Shown here in pieces: positions 1 through 18,542 of a stretch of DNA of 35,787 bases. Position 1 is the first letter of the stretch, and every line of letters starts with the position of its first letter. The translations under genes and the position numbers were made by a program. The notes under the pieces are model-generated. The model searched no databases. It was not told the origin of the DNA and saw only the letters and a program-made list of their open reading frames with translations. Source of the stretch: Calditrichia bacterium (lineage in GTDB: Bacteria; Calditrichota; Calditrichia; RBG-13-44-9; J075); assembly GCA_028284905.1 (NCBI GenBank), contig JANQQU010000051.1, positions 1 through 35,787 of the forward strand. The letters are read 5' to 3'.

Positions 1-47
1 GTAAGGTAAGCGTTCATGAGAGAATTTAACTGCAAATGAGCAAACGA

Positions 48-99
48 GCAAATGGGCCAGTAGAGGAAATTCATGAATTTCCTCTACTGGCCCATTTGC
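48..99. terminator. Perfect 52-nt palindrome just downstream of the porX-like stop
   Basis: The two 26-nt arms are exactly complementary, with the centre at TCATGA (positions 71-76). The hairpin starts 8 nt beyond the minus-strand stop codon at 108-110. The outer part is made of GCAAATGG-type words that recur at 14223 and 16658, and more such words lie at 32-50. No long U-run follows on the minus strand, so it may be an mRNA-end or REP-like element rather than a classical intrinsic terminator. Confidence 0.7.
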
Positions 100-107
100 C
101 CATTTTA

Positions 108-1670
108 TTATTTCGGTTGCAGGCGTATCACCGGAAGGACCATCTCTTCCAGGGAAATGCCGCCATGCTGAAAACTGTCCCGATAATAAGACAAATATTT
201 ATGATAATTGGTAGGATAGACGAAGTAGTAATCTTCCTTGGCGACGATATAGTTGATGTTAAAATTACGCCGCGGGAGCTTGCCGTCCAGGGGATTGCGG
301 ATAAAAAAAGCATGCTTGTTATCGACCTTCAGATTACGACCGTATTTGTAACGCAAGTTCGTGGAGGTTTCCCGGTCGCCAAGCACTTTCGTACCGCGCA
401 TACAACGAATACTGCCATGGTCGCTGGTGACAATTATGGTCAGATCTTTCCGCTCCGACAACTTCTGGAAAACCCGGTAGATTGGTGAATGTTCAAACCA
501 GGAGCAGGTCAGCGAACGATAGGAGGACTCATCCGGGGCAATTTGTTTCAGGATGGGTAGATCGGAGCGGCTGTGGGCAAGAATATCCACAAAGTTAACC
601 ACGATGCTTAACAATGGCGTATCGAGGTAAGAAGAGAGATTCTTTTCCAGATTACGCGCTTCATCGACGGAGATAATTTTGGTATAGCGTGGCTGGTTGC
701 GCAGTTTTAATCCCAGTAAGCGCAGCTGATCATACATCAACTGGCCTTCGTGGCGATTGCGGCTATGATCGTCATCTTCGCCTTGCGCCCACATTTCCGG
801 ATAGCGTCGTTCCAGTTCGCTGGGCAATAATCCGCTAAAAATTGCATTGCGGGAAAACGGCGTGGCCGTGGGGAGAATACTAAAGTGATAATCTTTTTGA
901 ATGTTATAGTAATTGTAGAAATATTTTTCCATCGCCATCCACTGATCGAGGCGCATGCAGTCGATAACCATGAAAACGACTTTCTTGCCTTCTTTTAATT
1001 CGGGATAGACAAATTTTTCGATAATATCATGGGAAAGTGTCGGGCGATCATCTTTTTCGGCATTCACCCAATTGATGTAATTCTTCTCAATGTACTTCCC
1101 GAATTCAACATTGCACTCCCGGCGCTGGTTATAAAGAATTTCCCGTAGCTCTTCATCGGGAACACTATCCAGCTCCAGATCCCAGTTACAAATTTTCTGG
1201 AACATCTCGATCCAGTCTTCGGGATACATATGAGACATCAGCTGCATGGTGATTTTGTTGATTTCCTGGGTATAATCGCGGGTAATTTTCTTCTGGGAAA
1301 TGTCTCGCGATTCCAGAATCTTTTTCGCCGCAATCAATATTTGACTGGGGTTTACCGGTTTGGTGAGGTAGTCGGTAATTTGTGCGCCGATGGCATCTTC
1401 CATCAGGCTTTCTTCTTCGCTTTTCGTAATCATAATTACCGGCAGTCCCGGGCTAACTTTCTTGATTTCGCCGAGGGCGGTTAGTCCATCCTGGCCGGGC
1501 ATCATTTCATCCAGTAAAACAAGATCAAAAGAGGTTTGTTTGAGCAGATCAAGGCCGTCTTCCGCATTAGTTGCGGTTTCGACATCGTAGCCTTTTTCTC
1601 TCAGGAAAAGTATGTGCGGTTGCAAGAATTCAATTTCGTCGTCCACCCAAAGGATTTTGGCTTTGTTCAT
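108..1670 (-). CDS. porX: PorX-like response regulator with PglZ (alkaline-phosphatase-like) domain
   Basis: A 520-residue cytoplasmic two-component regulator. An N-terminal REC domain (about 1-120) carries the acidic pair D10-D11, phospho-acceptor D54, T82 and K104. A helical linker (about 125-220) leads to a PglZ/alkaline-phosphatase-superfamily domain (about 225-510). The domain shows the expected metal and nucleophile residues: D237 in VIDCMR, T270 in TATPFSRNAIFSG, D362 and H366 in FVDILAH, D417-H418 in TSDHGS, and H502 in QHGGISLEEMV. Length and order match PorX of Bacteroidota, which controls type IX secretion and whose PglZ domain is an oligonucleotide phosphodiesterase. I chose ATG 1670 because AAGGA lies 6 nt upstream; a TTG one codon earlier is less likely. 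No histidine kinase or secretion gene is adjacent. Family call is firm; control of type IX secretion here is inferred. Confidence 0.88.
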   Translation of the reverse strand: MNKAKILWVDDEIEFLQPHILFLREKGYDVETATNAEDGLDLLKQTSFDLVLLDEMMPGQDGLTALGEIKKVSPGLPVIMITKSEEESLMEDAIGAQITDYLTKPVNPSQILIAAKKILESRDISQKKITRDYTQEINKITMQLMSHMYPEDWIEMFQKICNWDLELDSVPDEELREILYNQRRECNVEFGKYIEKNYINWVNAEKDDRPTLSHDIIEKFVYPELKEGKKVVFMVIDCMRLDQWMAMEKYFYNYYNIQKDYHFSILPTATPFSRNAIFSGLLPSELERRYPEMWAQGEDDDHSRNRHEGQLMYDQLRLLGLKLRNQPRYTKIISVDEARNLEKNLSSYLDTPLLSIVVNFVDILAHSRSDLPILKQIAPDESSYRSLTCSWFEHSPIYRVFQKLSERKDLTIIVTSDHGSIRCMRGTKVLGDRETSTNLRYKYGRNLKVDNKHAFFIRNPLDGKLPRRNFNINYIVAKEDYYFVYPTNYHKYLSYYRDSFQHGGISLEEMVLPVIRLQPK

Positions 1671-1729: not shown

Positions 1730-1980
1730 CTTTTGTCGATATGAATCCTTGGAAGATGGTTGTTTTTTTACGTATTTAATCTCTTACTAAAACTATCAAC
1801 TGGGTTCGTTGGCGCTTTTGTAGTGTATGGTTCCGCTCCCGATGGTCGCTGATGGTTCCACTCACTGCGTTCGTTAATGGTTGCGCTCCTGGCGTCGCTG
1901 ATGGTTAACTTCTTTAGGCCTGCTATTTCAACCATCAGCGAAGCGCAACAATTAGCGACCGCAGGGAGCGGAACCATATT
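1730..1980. repeat. 25-nt periodic and inverted repeat cluster in the porX/ompA gap
   Basis: ATGGTT occurs at 1827, 1852, 1877 and 1901, a period of 25, 25 and 24 nt, each followed by CGCTC- or CGCTG-like words. Inverted AACCAT copies lie at 1930 and 1972, so the block folds on itself; 1827-1851 pairs with about 1953-1977 with few mismatches. A second small module, TGGCGCTTTTGT, occurs near 1733 and again near 1809. The 1671-2055 gap holds no gene I can support; its one open frame is built entirely of these repeats. Confidence 0.7.
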
Positions 1981-6489: not shown

Positions 6490-6630
6490 AATAATACTCC
6501 TTTAGTTTAGTGGATTGAAATATTTTTCTTATCCACCACCTTGACCGATTTTTTCTACGATGCTCCGGCAAGAATGTTCACAAATTTCCGGGCAAAAAAA
6601 AGTAAATTCTTATTCCTGCTTTGTTTTTCA

Positions 6631-6665
6631 AATTCCGAATTCCGAATTCTAAATTCCGAATTCAA
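6631..6665. repeat. Five 7-nt units (AATTCCG type) next to a stop codon
   Basis: The units AATTCCG, AATTCCG, AATTCTA, AATTCCG and AATTCAA follow one another with no gap, ending 1 nt before the minus-strand stop at 6667-6669. Because AATT and GAATTC are self-complementary, the block can fold on either strand. It lies at the 3' end of the four-helix membrane protein gene. The 6490-6630 stretch otherwise holds nothing I recognise. Confidence 0.75.
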
Positions 6666-10158: not shown

Positions 10159-10178
10159 GTTGAAGAGACGGTTCTTTT

Positions 10179-10503
10179 TAAGCCACTGATTTGCACGGAT
10201 TTCACGGATAACGGCAAAGATCTTATTAAGAGGTTTTGAGAAGTTTTTTACATCTGTGAAAATCAGTGATCATCTGTGGCTTAATTTTAAAAGCGCTGTT
10301 ATGTGAGATGTTCAATTCCGAGTTAGCCGGCATATGTTGTTTCTAAGCCACTGATTTGCACGGATTTCACGGATAAAGGCAAGGGCCTTGTTAAAAAGTT
10401 GTGAAAAGCATTTTACATCAGTGAAGATCAGTGATCATCCGTGGCTTAATTTAAAATATATTGAAATAACGTCGAGATGCTCAATTTCGAGATTTTTGGC
10501 ATT
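10179..10503. repeat. Tandem duplication of a 165-nt element with terminal inverted repeats
   Basis: Two copies start with TAAGCCACTGATTTGCACGG at 10179 and 10344. The 105-nt cores (10179-10283 and 10344-10448) differ at about 14 positions and both end GTGGCTTA, the inverse of TAAGCCAC. A weaker tail (GAGATG-TCAATT-CGAG) follows each copy, giving a repeat unit of 165 nt. Similar AAGCCACTGATT / CACGGATTTCACGGAT elements are scattered in intergenic DNA of many environmental bacteria. It fills the gap between the desaturase and the acetamidase gene; no open frame is in it. Confidence 0.85.
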
Positions 10504-10561
10504 AAAGATAGAATAAAATCAAGCGGCGTAAGACTAAGGGCCTTTAGGAAAGGAGATAGAG

Positions 10562-13363: not shown

Positions 13364-13502
13364 TTGTCTTATATCCCCCGGTGATGGAATCATCGGGCCC
13401 TGCTAATGCCTCACAAGTGACGCAAAAACAAAGTCCGATTTATCGGACGGCTGAAGATAAGCCATGGATTCATCCATGGCCAACAGTCCAAAAGGAACCC
13501 TC
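13364..13502 (+). other. Hairpin-rich gap before deoC
   Basis: In 139 nt there are two tight inverted repeats: GTCCGAT/ATCGGAC (13433-13448) and GCCATGGAT/ATCCATGGC (13461-13479), and a looser one around 13375-13398. AAAAGGAA at 13490-13497 is the ribosome site of deoC at 13503. These could be a processed or attenuating leader; nothing known is recognised. Confidence 0.45.
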
Positions 13503-14222
13503 ATGCCCGAAACAATCACCCTAAAATCCCTCGCAAAAATGATCGATCACTCCCTCCTCCACCCAACAATGACAGACCGGGAAATCGCTGAGGGCTGCGA
13601 GCTCTCCCGAAGATATGACGTCGCCACCGCCTGCGTAAAGCCCTATGCTATCCCCCTGGCAAAATCAATCCTCTCTGGCTCCGATGTGGAAGTCTGCGCC
13701 GTGATCGCATTTCCCCACGGTAACAGTACGCCAGCAATGAAGCGCCGCGAAGCGGAGGAAGTCTGTGCCGCCGGCGCCACCGAGGTGGATGTGGTCGTTA
13801 ATATCGGGAAAGTACTTGGGGGCGACTGGGATTATGTCTCTGCTGAGATTGAGTCCATCAATAAAACCGTTGTAGATAATGGTGCGATCCTGAAAGTGAT
13901 TTTCGAAAACGATTATCTCTCCGATGAACACATCATCCGTCTCTGCGAAATTTGCAGTGAGCATGCAGTAGCATTTGTAAAAACCTCATCGGGGTATGGC
14001 TTTGTGAAGCAGGAGAATGGAATGTATTCCTACAAAGGAGCGACCGATCCACAGCTTCGCCTGATGCGCAAGCATTGTCCACCGCCCGTGGATATTAAAG
14101 GCGCGGGAGGATTACGCACGTTGGACGACCTGCTGCGGGTGAGGGAGATGGGCGTTAGCCGCATCGGCGCCACTGCTACAGCGAAGATTCTCGATACTGC
14201 CCGGGAACAAGGTTTCAAGTGA
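13503..14222 (+). CDS. deoC: Deoxyribose-phosphate aldolase
   Basis: A 239-residue class I aldolase that cleaves 2-deoxyribose 5-phosphate into glyceraldehyde 3-phosphate and acetaldehyde, the last step of deoxynucleoside breakdown. Schiff-base Lys K160 is in VAFVKTSSGYG, with D96 (EVDVVVNIGK) and K199 (VDIKGAGG) as the proton relay. The frame extends to an ATG at 13464, but that lies inside a hairpin and lacks a ribosome site; ATG 13503 has AAAAGGAA at 5 nt. The stop TGA runs straight into an 8-nt repeat block. Neighbours are a sugar isomerase and a symporter. Confidence 0.93.
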   Translation: MPETITLKSLAKMIDHSLLHPTMTDREIAEGCELSRRYDVATACVKPYAIPLAKSILSGSDVEVCAVIAFPHGNSTPAMKRREAEEVCAAGATEVDVVVNIGKVLGGDWDYVSAEIESINKTVVDNGAILKVIFENDYLSDEHIIRLCEICSEHAVAFVKTSSGYGFVKQENGMYSYKGATDPQLRLMRKHCPPPVDIKGAGGLRTLDDLLRVREMGVSRIGATATAKILDTAREQGFK

Positions 14223-14286
14223 GCAAATCTGCAAATCTGCAAATCTGCAAATCTGCAAATTTGCCCATTTGTAAATTTACCCATTT
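14220..14286. repeat. 8-nt periodic block (GCAAATCT words) starting at the deoC stop
   Basis: From 14223 the sequence reads as eight successive octamers: GCAAATCT four times, then GCAAATTT, GCCCATTT, GTAAATTT and ACCCATTT. The GCAAAT and ATTTGC words make it foldable. It begins at the base after the deoC TGA and ends 39 nt before the symporter start. The same word family is at 32-107 and 16658-16718. Confidence 0.85.
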
Positions 14287-14324
14287 ACCGCATCTGCTAG
14301 TTCAAACTTAAAGAAGGAAGCAAA

Positions 14325-16367: not shown

Positions 16368-16513
16368 GTGGCGATTTATGGCTGTTTATTATTGGAATGA
16401 TGATGTCCCTGGTCGTTTCTGTCGCAGGAATGATGCTGGCGTACTTCTCCTATAAAAAACATCATGGTACTGGCGCAGATGGTGCTGGGAAAGGAGGTAG
16501 TGAAAATGGCTAA
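16364..16513 (+). CDS. 49-residue single-helix membrane protein, gene 2 of 3
   Basis: A short protein, MSGDLWLFIIGMMMSLVVSV followed by AGMMLAYFSYKKHHGTGADG, with one Met-rich membrane helix (about 5-29) and a Gly/His/Lys tail. It starts inside the stop of the preceding gene (ATGA), with GGAGGAG 9 nt upstream (16351-16357), and its end overlaps the start of gene 3 by 8 nt. Overlap on both sides argues strongly that it is translated. It resembles, in size and plan only, the tiny accessory subunits known for some Na+ symporters (for example the small subunits paired with certain SSS or NSS carriers). Confidence 0.7.
   Translation: MSGDLWLFIIGMMMSLVVSVAGMMLAYFSYKKHHGTGADGAGKGGSENG
16490..16497 (+). 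promoter_or_regulatory. Shine-Dalgarno AAAGGAGG inside gene 2 that sets the start of gene 3
   Basis: This full-length ribosome site lies in the last codons of the 49-residue gene, 8 nt before ATG 16506. It decides against the upstream start at 16464, which would add 14 residues. Confidence 0.7.
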
Positions 16514-16652
16514 ATTGGTGTTTATGATTGCCGAGCCGATTGGGAGTCCGGCCCTGGGAATTATCATTCCCGGAATTGTTTTTGCCGCAGCGGTATTGGC
16601 AACCTATCTCCTCTACCGGCACTTTTCACAAAGTAGCAGTGGCGGGGAATAG
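16506..16652 (+). CDS. 48-residue single-helix membrane protein, gene 3 of 3
   Basis: A tiny protein, MAKLVFMIAEPIGSPALGII then PGIVFAAAVLATYLLYRHFS, with a short amphipathic start, a Pro/Gly hinge and one membrane helix (about 18-39), then a polar tail. It overlaps gene 2 by 8 nt and has its own AAAGGAGG. The stop TAG is followed at once by an 8-nt repeat block shared with the convergent methyltransferase gene. No family recognised; the conserved packing with genes 1 and 2 is the main clue that it forms part of the same complex. Confidence 0.68.
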   Translation: MAKLVFMIAEPIGSPALGIIIPGIVFAAAVLATYLLYRHFSQSSSGGE

Positions 16653-16718
16653 TAAATGAGCAAGTGAGCAAATGAGCAGTTATTGCTTGATTGCTCATCT
16701 GCTCATCTGCTCATTTGC
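16653..16718. repeat. Inverted 8-nt repeat block between convergent genes
   Basis: Octamers GAGCAAGT, GAGCAAAT and GAGCAGTT (16658-16681) face GCTCATCT, GCTCATCT and GCTCATTT (16693-16716), so the block folds into a long hairpin. It starts directly after the TAG of the 48-residue gene and supplies the last two codons and the TGA of the opposite-strand methyltransferase. It may act as a two-way terminator. Confidence 0.85.
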
Positions 16719-17448
16719 GACAAAAATATATTTCCCCGCTTGCTTCCGTCAACCCCATTTGTGTTGCTGTTTCTGCGTCAACAAGATCCGTTATTTCGAT
16801 GACATCTACGCTAAATCCGGTTTCGCGCAGTCGTTCGGCATAATCCGGACCATAACGGCGCACATGGTCTTCCTGCCCAAACAATGCCAGGCGTTCTGCC
16901 GGATCGGTGATGCTCGGATCTTCAATCGTTTTCTCGCTGGTAATCGGCACTTGTAAAATTGCCCAGCCATCGCTTTTTAATACCCGCTGAAATTCCCGCA
17001 TCGCTTTTTTATCATCAGGCACATGCTCCAGGACGTGGCTGCAATAAATAACATCGAAGGATTGATCGGGATACTGAATATTGGTGATGTCCATCTGCAC
17101 CATTACGTTCGGATCCAGCAGATCGGCAGTTAGATAACCCGATCCGATCTTTTCCCGAAAACGGGATTCGAAACATTTTTCCGGGGCGACGTGAAGCATC
17201 TCTTTCTTACGCCCGTCGAAAAGATTGGTATGCTCGGAGAGATAGATCCAAAGCAGGCGATGACGCTCAAAGGCACCACAATGGGCGCACTGCGCATCCG
17301 CCCGGGGAACAATACCGCCGTCTAAAAATTGCCGGGACGAACGTTGGCAAACCGGACAAAATCTAGCGCTGCCATGGTAAAGTGTCGAGCGAAGTTGCCG
17401 CAGGGGTTTCTTGGCCCATTCGGGAAGTTGAGTGAACAAGGTTTTCAT
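16711..17448 (-). CDS. Class I SAM-dependent methyltransferase with N-terminal zinc ribbon
   Basis: A 245-residue protein. The N-terminal part has CPVC and CAHC pairs (about residues 31-34 and 54-57), likely a zinc ribbon. The Rossmann methyltransferase core follows: MLHVAPEKCFE with a degenerate motif I, YLTADLLDP, the FDVIYCSHVLEHVPDD motif of Methyltransf_11 and LKSDGWAILQVP. The typical GxGxG is replaced, as in several methyltransferases of this group. The frame extends 9 codons to a TTG at 17475; ATG 17448 is chosen although its ribosome site is poor. The last two codons and stop lie in a repeat block. The substrate is unknown; surface-sugar methylation is one possibility. Confidence 0.8.
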   Translation of the reverse strand: MKTLFTQLPEWAKKPLRQLRSTLYHGSARFCPVCQRSSRQFLDGGIVPRADAQCAHCGAFERHRLLWIYLSEHTNLFDGRKKEMLHVAPEKCFESRFREKIGSGYLTADLLDPNVMVQMDITNIQYPDQSFDVIYCSHVLEHVPDDKKAMREFQRVLKSDGWAILQVPITSEKTIEDPSITDPAERLALFGQEDHVRRYGPDYAERLRETGFSVDVIEITDLVDAETATQMGLTEASGEIYFCRK

Positions 17449-18424: not shown

Positions 18425-18542
18425 AATGTCCAATGTCCAATCTAAAATATCCAATGTAAAAGGAACTACATCAGGCAATGAGCAGCGTATCAGGAAGGAA
18501 AACACTTCGACATTTTAAATTGAATATTGATCATTGGACATT
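18425..18542. repeat. Dispersed inverted-repeat element (copy 2)
   Basis: AATGTCCAATG (18425-18435) is exactly inverted as CATTGGACATT (18532-18542), giving a 118-nt element with 11-bp ends. The inner block ACTTCGACATTTTAAATTGA (18504-18523) matches copy 1 at 15974. The element touches the stop codon of the GPP34 protein B gene at 18543. The 18308-18424 part of this gap is AT-rich with no feature I can name. Confidence 0.75.

What the first reader, a model, noticed from the sequence alone, without database searches (positions are those of the whole stretch)
14220..14286. Eight-nucleotide periodic repeat family placed exactly at gene ends
Three sites carry blocks built of octamers: 32-107 (GCAAATGA, GCAAACGA, GCAAATGG and inverse), 14223-14286 (eight perfect octamers) and 16658-16718 (three octamers, then three inverse octamers). 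All three start within a few bases of a stop codon: porX, deoC, and the pair 48-residue gene / methyltransferase. Spacing is constant at 8 nt although the words drift, so the period, not the word, seems conserved. This differs from known REP or BIME elements, which are about 20-35 nt palindromes without octamer periodicity. It may be a terminator, an mRNA-end stabiliser, or a product of slippage templated by the stop-codon context.
Basis: seen in the sequence. Interest (0 to 1): 0.75.

Follow-up and report, generated by a model that had tools for sequence, protein, structure and literature searches.

The report
Repeat arrays pinned to stop codons
In this bacterium and its relatives, short 7- or 8-letter DNA words are repeated head to tail immediately after the ends of genes, often with a mirror-image copy; the spacing and position recur while the word differs between species and loci, which most likely reflects copying slippage stopped at the gene's edge, possibly with a mild role at the ends of messages.

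Summary
GCAAATNN triples (up to 3 mismatches) occur 414+402 times in the 8.55-Mb genome, against 2+2 for the reversed control, in roughly 240 elements. Typical form: [stop](GCAAATNN)n - loop - (NNATTTGC)m, the array nearest the stop almost always in gene sense.

Word-free tests find essentially only lags 7 and 8: 75 of 675 gaps here, 17 of 208 in a sister genus with different words, none in shuffles. Arrays touch stops more than placement predicts and avoid starts. Several heptamer families in this genome behave similarly.

Five tandem paralogues (G003) share C-termini but carry about 1-12 units of different words after the stop. Two species of one genus show an array present in only one, changed copy number, word drift at kept period, and a stop codon swapped in register.

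Best reading: slippage-generated arrays whose edge is set at the stop by purifying selection. Spread of one octamer to ~240 places, its polarity and the hairpins need more, perhaps copying between gene ends and/or a weak mRNA 3'-end role. Closest known: GGGAATC heptamers of Xanthomonas/Nostoc (PMC4692102); most arrays here cannot form quadruplexes. New variant of a known kind.

The parts
32..107 (-). Octamer array plus inverse copy around a perfect inverted core, between the porX stop (108) and the start of the next minus-strand gene (about 17)
   Evidence: folds at -52.6 kcal/mol in porX sense
108..1670 (-). porX (response regulator + PglZ domain); stop at 108-110 directly abuts the array
13476..14222 (+). 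deoC-like aldolase; stop TGA at 14220-14222 is in register with the array (TCAAGTGA|GCAAATCT)
14223..14288 (+). Array: 4x GCAAATCT, GCAAATTT, then three drifted units of opposite polarity
16464..16652 (+). Small ORF (62 aa, no Pfam match) ending in TAG; the G is unit position 1 of the array
16653..16718 (+). Array, loop, inverse array filling a convergent gap; -38.7 kcal/mol hairpin
16711..17448 (-). Methyltransferase; its TGA stop is part of an octamer of the array
18425..18542 (-). Sibling 7-nt array (AATGTCC family) directly after a TAG stop, with inverted partner at 18425-18461
6630..6663 (-). Sibling 7-nt array (GGAATTC family), 3 nt after a TAG stop

Best explanation
These are tandem arrays of 7-8 nt words that arise, lengthen, shorten and change word by slippage or tandem duplication in the DNA just after genes. 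Their gene-side edge is set at the natural stop codon because 7- or 8-nt changes further in would shift the frame, while changes at or after the stop are tolerated. The stop itself is often taken into the array, so it sits in register and can be swapped (TGA, TAA, TAG) as the array turns over. Regions before start codons are avoided, presumably because they hold promoters and ribosome sites. In this genome one word, GCAAATGG, has additionally been copied to roughly 240 gene ends and gaps, usually in gene sense and often with an inverted partner that folds into a hairpin. Shown: the placement, periods, in-register stops, copy-number and word differences between paralogues and orthologues, sense polarity. 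Inferred: slippage as the process, purifying selection as the limit, some copying between loci. Not shown: any effect on RNA.
For: Genome-wide excess over control. Essentially only lags 7 and 8, in two genomes with different words; none in shuffles; near zero at lags 5-6 and 9-12. Stop edge within 3 nt: 34% vs 17% null (G000), 30% vs 5% (G003). Adjacent units share their variable dinucleotide 57% vs 38% in within-array permutations (p=0.0003) and 24% across arrays. G003 C59: five tandem paralogues with the same C-terminus, most with a shared 3' flank, and about 11, 1, 12, 2 and 4 units between. G005 vs G006: stop swapped TGA/TAA within the array, internal repeats 3 vs 1 and 4 vs 1, word drift at period 7, and one array of TAG-containing units present only in G005. 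Array-bearing proteins are not systematically truncated: C-terminal tail difference to the best homologue has median 0, n=32. Stop usage at array ends shifted to TGA/TAG (p=5e-5), with TGA at phase 1 in 13/22 and TAG at phase 2 in 13/19.
Against: Independent slippage cannot give the same octamer at about 240 loci, nor the sense polarity (by inspection about 61 of 65 array-bearing stops are sense-first, 2 antisense, 2 ambiguous), nor inverted partners at 18 of 29 codirectional gene ends. The within-gap null for octamers alone is only moderately exceeded (18 vs 11.6 expected, p=0.002) because arrays often fill the gap.
Confidence: 0.6

Rival explanations
1. Selected mRNA 3'-end devices: the sense array and its inverse fold into a hairpin after the stop that ends transcription or protects the 3' end, in both directions between convergent genes.
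For: Array ends fold far below shuffles (mean z -5.0 vs -1.55 at other gene ends); convergent gaps enriched (16/65 vs 51/516 codirectional, OR 3.0, p=0.0015); fixed polarity; inverted arm at 18/29 codirectional ends; avoidance of starts. In Xanthomonas, transcripts start or end more often at quadruplex-capable repeats than at control repeats (PMC4692102).
Against: No U-tract terminator at 25 array ends, against 6-10% at other ends (difference not significant); own arms pair no better than swapped arms (p=0.96, n=16); 11 of 29 codirectional ends lack a partner; only about 11% of gaps carry any array, so most genes do without.
Confidence: 0.25
2. A dispersed mobile element family (REP/BIME- or MITE-like) that inserts at gene ends.
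For: One word at hundreds of loci in one genome and near background in relatives; palindromic form; preference for gene ends.
Against: No conserved loop or body between arms; the two RAYT genes carry no arrays in about 1.5-kb flanks; different words at paralogous ends with a shared flank.
Confidence: 0.1
3. All-frame safety stops: periods that are not multiples of 3 place stop codons in all frames after a leaky stop.
For: In G003 and G005 many units contain TGA, TAA or TAG.
Against: In G000 the sense stop density in arrays (3.4 per 100 nt) is below shuffled (6.1) and similar to antisense (2.9); the commonest octamer GCAAATGG has none.
Confidence: 0.03
4. G-quadruplex elements, as proposed for GGGAATC heptamers.
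For: GGGCAAAT repeats contain a GGG per unit.
Against: Only 9 of 130 octamer arrays have four G-tracts in reach; most sibling families have no G-tract.
Confidence: 0.02

Closest known systems
GGGAATC / GGGGA(C/T)T heptamer arrays of Xanthomonas and Nostoc (Rehm et al. 2015, PMC4692102)
   Same: Many intergenic short-unit arrays, sense strand close to or overlapping stop codons, frequent inverted partners, word and length variation between relatives, under-represented between divergent genes
   Different: Here the main unit is 8 nt, most arrays cannot form quadruplexes, several unrelated words show the same placement within one genome, and the stop is in register with the unit
TAACTGA direct repeats of marine Beggiatoaceae (MacGregor 2015, PMC4679880)
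   Same: Genome-wide intergenic heptamer arrays in one polarity; stops in the word
   Different: Those mostly sit just upstream of start codons; these follow stop codons and avoid starts
Long simple sequence repeats of prokaryotes (Mrazek et al. 2007, as summarised in PMC4679880)
   Same: Heptamers the commonest class in most genomes; slippage proposed
   Different: No stop-codon rule or register in the summary I read; here 7 and 8 both, with one dispersed word
REP/BIME palindromes (PMC3733652, abstract only)
   Same: Extragenic, palindromic, proposed 3'-end roles
   Different: 20-40 nt single palindromes; here tandem 7-8 nt units and no RAYT link found

Membership tests
Heptamer-type intergenic SSR arrays (Rehm 2015) | Many tandem short-unit arrays, mostly intergenic | tested here: met
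Heptamer-type intergenic SSR arrays (Rehm 2015) | Sense-strand position next to stop codons; inverted pairs | tested here: met
Heptamer-type intergenic SSR arrays (Rehm 2015) | Four G-tracts able to form a quadruplex | tested here: not met
   9 of 130 arrays
TAACTGA repeats (Beggiatoaceae) | Within a few nt upstream of start codons | tested here: not met
REP/BIME | Single 20-40 nt palindrome as the unit | tested here: not met
   tandem period 7/8
REP/BIME | Association with a RAYT transposase gene | tested here: not met
   two PF01797 genes, no arrays in flanks
Intrinsic terminator | Stable hairpin after the stop | tested here: met
   72% of array ends with z below -2
Intrinsic terminator | U-tract after the stem | tested here: not met
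   0 of 25 with a crude detector
Intrinsic terminator | RNA 3' ends at the site | not testable with these tools
   no RNA data available
Known RNA families (Rfam) | Match over gathering score | tested here: not met
   no match in the window
Cyanobacterial STRR | Specific heptanucleotide words | not tested
   words known to me only from memory

The most novel reading that the evidence does not exclude
There is a general bacterial process that seeds 7-8 nt tandem arrays at the stop codon itself, with the stop codon as part of the first unit and independent of the word, perhaps linked to where ribosomes and RNA polymerase uncouple; the arrays then turn over quickly and some words spread to many gene ends.
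Probability: 0.15. Interest if true: 0.75.

Novelty: new variant of a known kind. Interest (0 to 1): 0.5.

Why it matters
Quadruplex formation was proposed for the best-studied arrays with this placement. Here the same placement and polarity hold for words that mostly cannot form quadruplexes, so position after the stop and a 7/8-nt period, not the word, look like the common factor. Paralogue clusters and same-genus pairs in this group show arrays that differ in presence, word, copy number and stop codon, which makes the question of why short arrays gather at gene ends directly testable.

Tried and rejected
(1) ORF artefact (the array merely supplies the first stop of a truncated ORF): C-termini match homologues (median tail difference 0) and the G003 paralogues end in the same residues; but some stops do lie inside the array, so it contributes. 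(2) RAYT mobilisation: no arrays near the two RAYT genes. (3) Quadruplex: 9/130. (4) All-frame safety stops: not in G000. (5) Arm co-adaptation as proof of an RNA hairpin: negative, n=16, limited power. (6) Rfam: nothing. (7) An exact 30-mer across genome contigs gave three unrelated hits, which I take as chance octamer SSRs. (8) The other-phyla survey is too small (96 gaps, gene caller trained on at most 20 kb each) to judge how widespread this is; 7-nt arrays do appear in some of those genomes. (9) The whole genome was not provided as a file, so positions rest on a 1.2-Mb sample plus 37 loci.

Full report
OBSERVATION. The three blocks are in the sequence at the stated places. The central one is four GCAAATCT plus GCAAATTT followed by three drifted units of opposite polarity, not eight perfect octamers. 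At 32-107 a perfect inverted core lies inside the octamers, and only porX presents a stop there: the other neighbour, on overlapping contig C4, presents its start. At 16653-16718 both neighbours present stops and the methyltransferase TGA lies inside an octamer.

EXTENT. The pattern GCAAATNNGCAAATNNGCAAAT with up to 3 mismatches hits the genome 414 times forward and 402 reverse; read backwards it hits 2 and 2. Relatives are at background, except one (G003) whose reversed control is equally high. I took 1.2 Mb of the genome in stretches plus loci around hits. Several contigs were chosen because they held hits, which inflates density but should not affect position relative to genes. Genes were called with a simple dicodon caller of my own; the window genes tested agree with Pfam.

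ANATOMY. Typical form: stop, (GCAAATNN)n in gene sense, short loop without conserved sequence, (NNATTTGC)m. In the contig sample every octamer array lying within 15 nt of a stop was sense by the first count (23/23). A second automatic count over all loci flagged 14 of 65 as antisense; reading these by eye leaves 2 antisense, 2 ambiguous and about 61 sense-first. Convergent gaps are often filled from stop to stop; 29 of 30 convergent and 18 of 29 codirectional cases have an inverted arm. Only 2 arrays lie within 20 nt upstream of a start.

POSITION. Octamer elements: 18 of 28 stop-facing ones within 15 nt of a stop, 11.6 expected by random placement in the same gaps (p=0.002); GGAATTC heptamers 9 of 11 vs 2.5 (p=0.0005); other heptamers weaker and not significant alone, partly for small numbers. 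Word-free: windows after stops show excess self-match at lags 7, 8, 14, 16, 21 and 24 in G000, windows before starts little or none; G003 shows the same at lags 7, 8, 14, 16 and 24. Arrays at lag 7 or 8 lie in 75 of 675 gaps (G000) and 17 of 208 (G003), 0 in shuffled gaps, almost none at lags 5-6 and 9-12; the stop edge is within 3 nt in 34% vs 17% null, and 30% vs 5%. Convergent gaps are enriched (OR 3.0, p=0.0015).

REGISTER. At TGA stops the unit starts right after the stop in 13 of 22; at TAG stops the G is unit position 1 in 13 of 19. Stop usage at array ends is TGA 22, TAG 19, TAA 18, against 204, 180, 536 in all sampled genes (p=5e-5). In G003 and G005 the stop letters match the letters one period downstream 57-58% of the time, 25-28% at other offsets (few arrays); in G000 over all families the effect is small (36% vs 29%).

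TURNOVER. Adjacent octamers share their variable dinucleotide more than expected (57% vs 38% permuted, 24% across arrays), the mark of local duplication. In G003, five tandem paralogues end in the same residues and most share the downstream flank, but between them lie, in order, about 11 AGGATTGA, 1 degenerate unit, 12 AACATTGA/AGCATTGA, 2 and 4 units. Between G005 and G006 (same genus, about 86-91% identical here), one gene end reads TGAAGCG TGAAACG TAAAACG TAACACG in one and TAAAACG TAATGCG TAACACG in the other; at a second the 7-nt word drifts while the period is kept; at a third a long array of TAGGCGAG/TAGGCAG follows the TAG stop in G005 and is absent in G006. Which state is ancestral was not determined.

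FUNCTION. Array ends fold strongly (mean z -5.0 vs -1.55) but have no U-tract terminators (0/25), and arms are not co-adapted within elements (p=0.96, n=16). Quadruplex potential is rare (9/130). Sense stop codons are not enriched in G000 arrays. So the favoured reading is slippage-born arrays with an edge set by selection at the stop; a 3'-end role is possible and would best explain the polarity and inverted arms. How one octamer reached about 240 places is unexplained.

KNOWN KINDS. The nearest precedent is the GGGAATC heptamer set of Xanthomonas and Nostoc, with the same placement, polarity and inverted partners, and more frequent transcript starts or ends at quadruplex-capable repeats (PMC4692102). 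Beggiatoaceae TAACTGA arrays lie before starts instead (PMC4679880). Heptamers are known as the commonest long SSR class (Mrazek 2007 via PMC4679880). The host is probably of the phylum of Caldithrix abyssi: a same-class genome is a single contig of 4,978,541 bases, matching the published 4.98 Mb (PMC5317091); this is inference from size alone.

Noticed in passing
G003 C59:21359-39488 (L163, L164): Five tandem paralogous large genes whose ends look like type IX secretion sorting domains, with differently sized arrays between a shared C-terminus and downstream DNA: a natural experiment in array turnover.
   Followed up: partly
L188:5867-6330 (G005) versus L228 (G006): An array of TAG-containing 7/8-nt units directly at a stop in one species and absent in the other; the two unit lengths mix in one array. 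The G005 gap also seems to hold an extra uncalled ORF.
   Followed up: partly
L192:19267-19474 (G005) and L213 (G006): Between the array and its inverse lies CCCTGAGCTTGTCGAAGGG, partly repeated 3-4 times in one species and once in the other; it resembles a palindrome core I know from other bacteria.
   Followed up: no
L190:3707-3805 (G005): A stretch of about 95-99 nt, absent from the orthologous G006 site but present elsewhere in G006 at 98-99% identity: looks like a small mobile element.
   Followed up: no
window 10159-10561: Two copies of a roughly 100-nt repeat with inverted ends (AAGCCACTGATTTGCACGGATTTCACGG ... CCGTGGCTTAA) in one gap.
   Followed up: no
window 1827-1980: 25-nt repeats (about ATGGTTCCGCTCCCGCGGTCGCTG) with an inverted copy, between two minus-strand genes.
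   Followed up: no
G000 C52:29666-29746 (L032): Convergent gap filled from stop to stop by AATGTCC arrays as arms of one hairpin around CCAAGGATACTTGG.
   Followed up: no
G000 C26:42594-44119 (L076): Octamer arrays flanked by inverted copies of TCGACTTTGTCACT on both sides of a gene, as if that gene had been inverted or duplicated between them.
   Followed up: no
window 1-99: The first 99 bases overlap the end of contig C4 exactly, so the assembly breaks at one of these repeat elements.
   Followed up: yes
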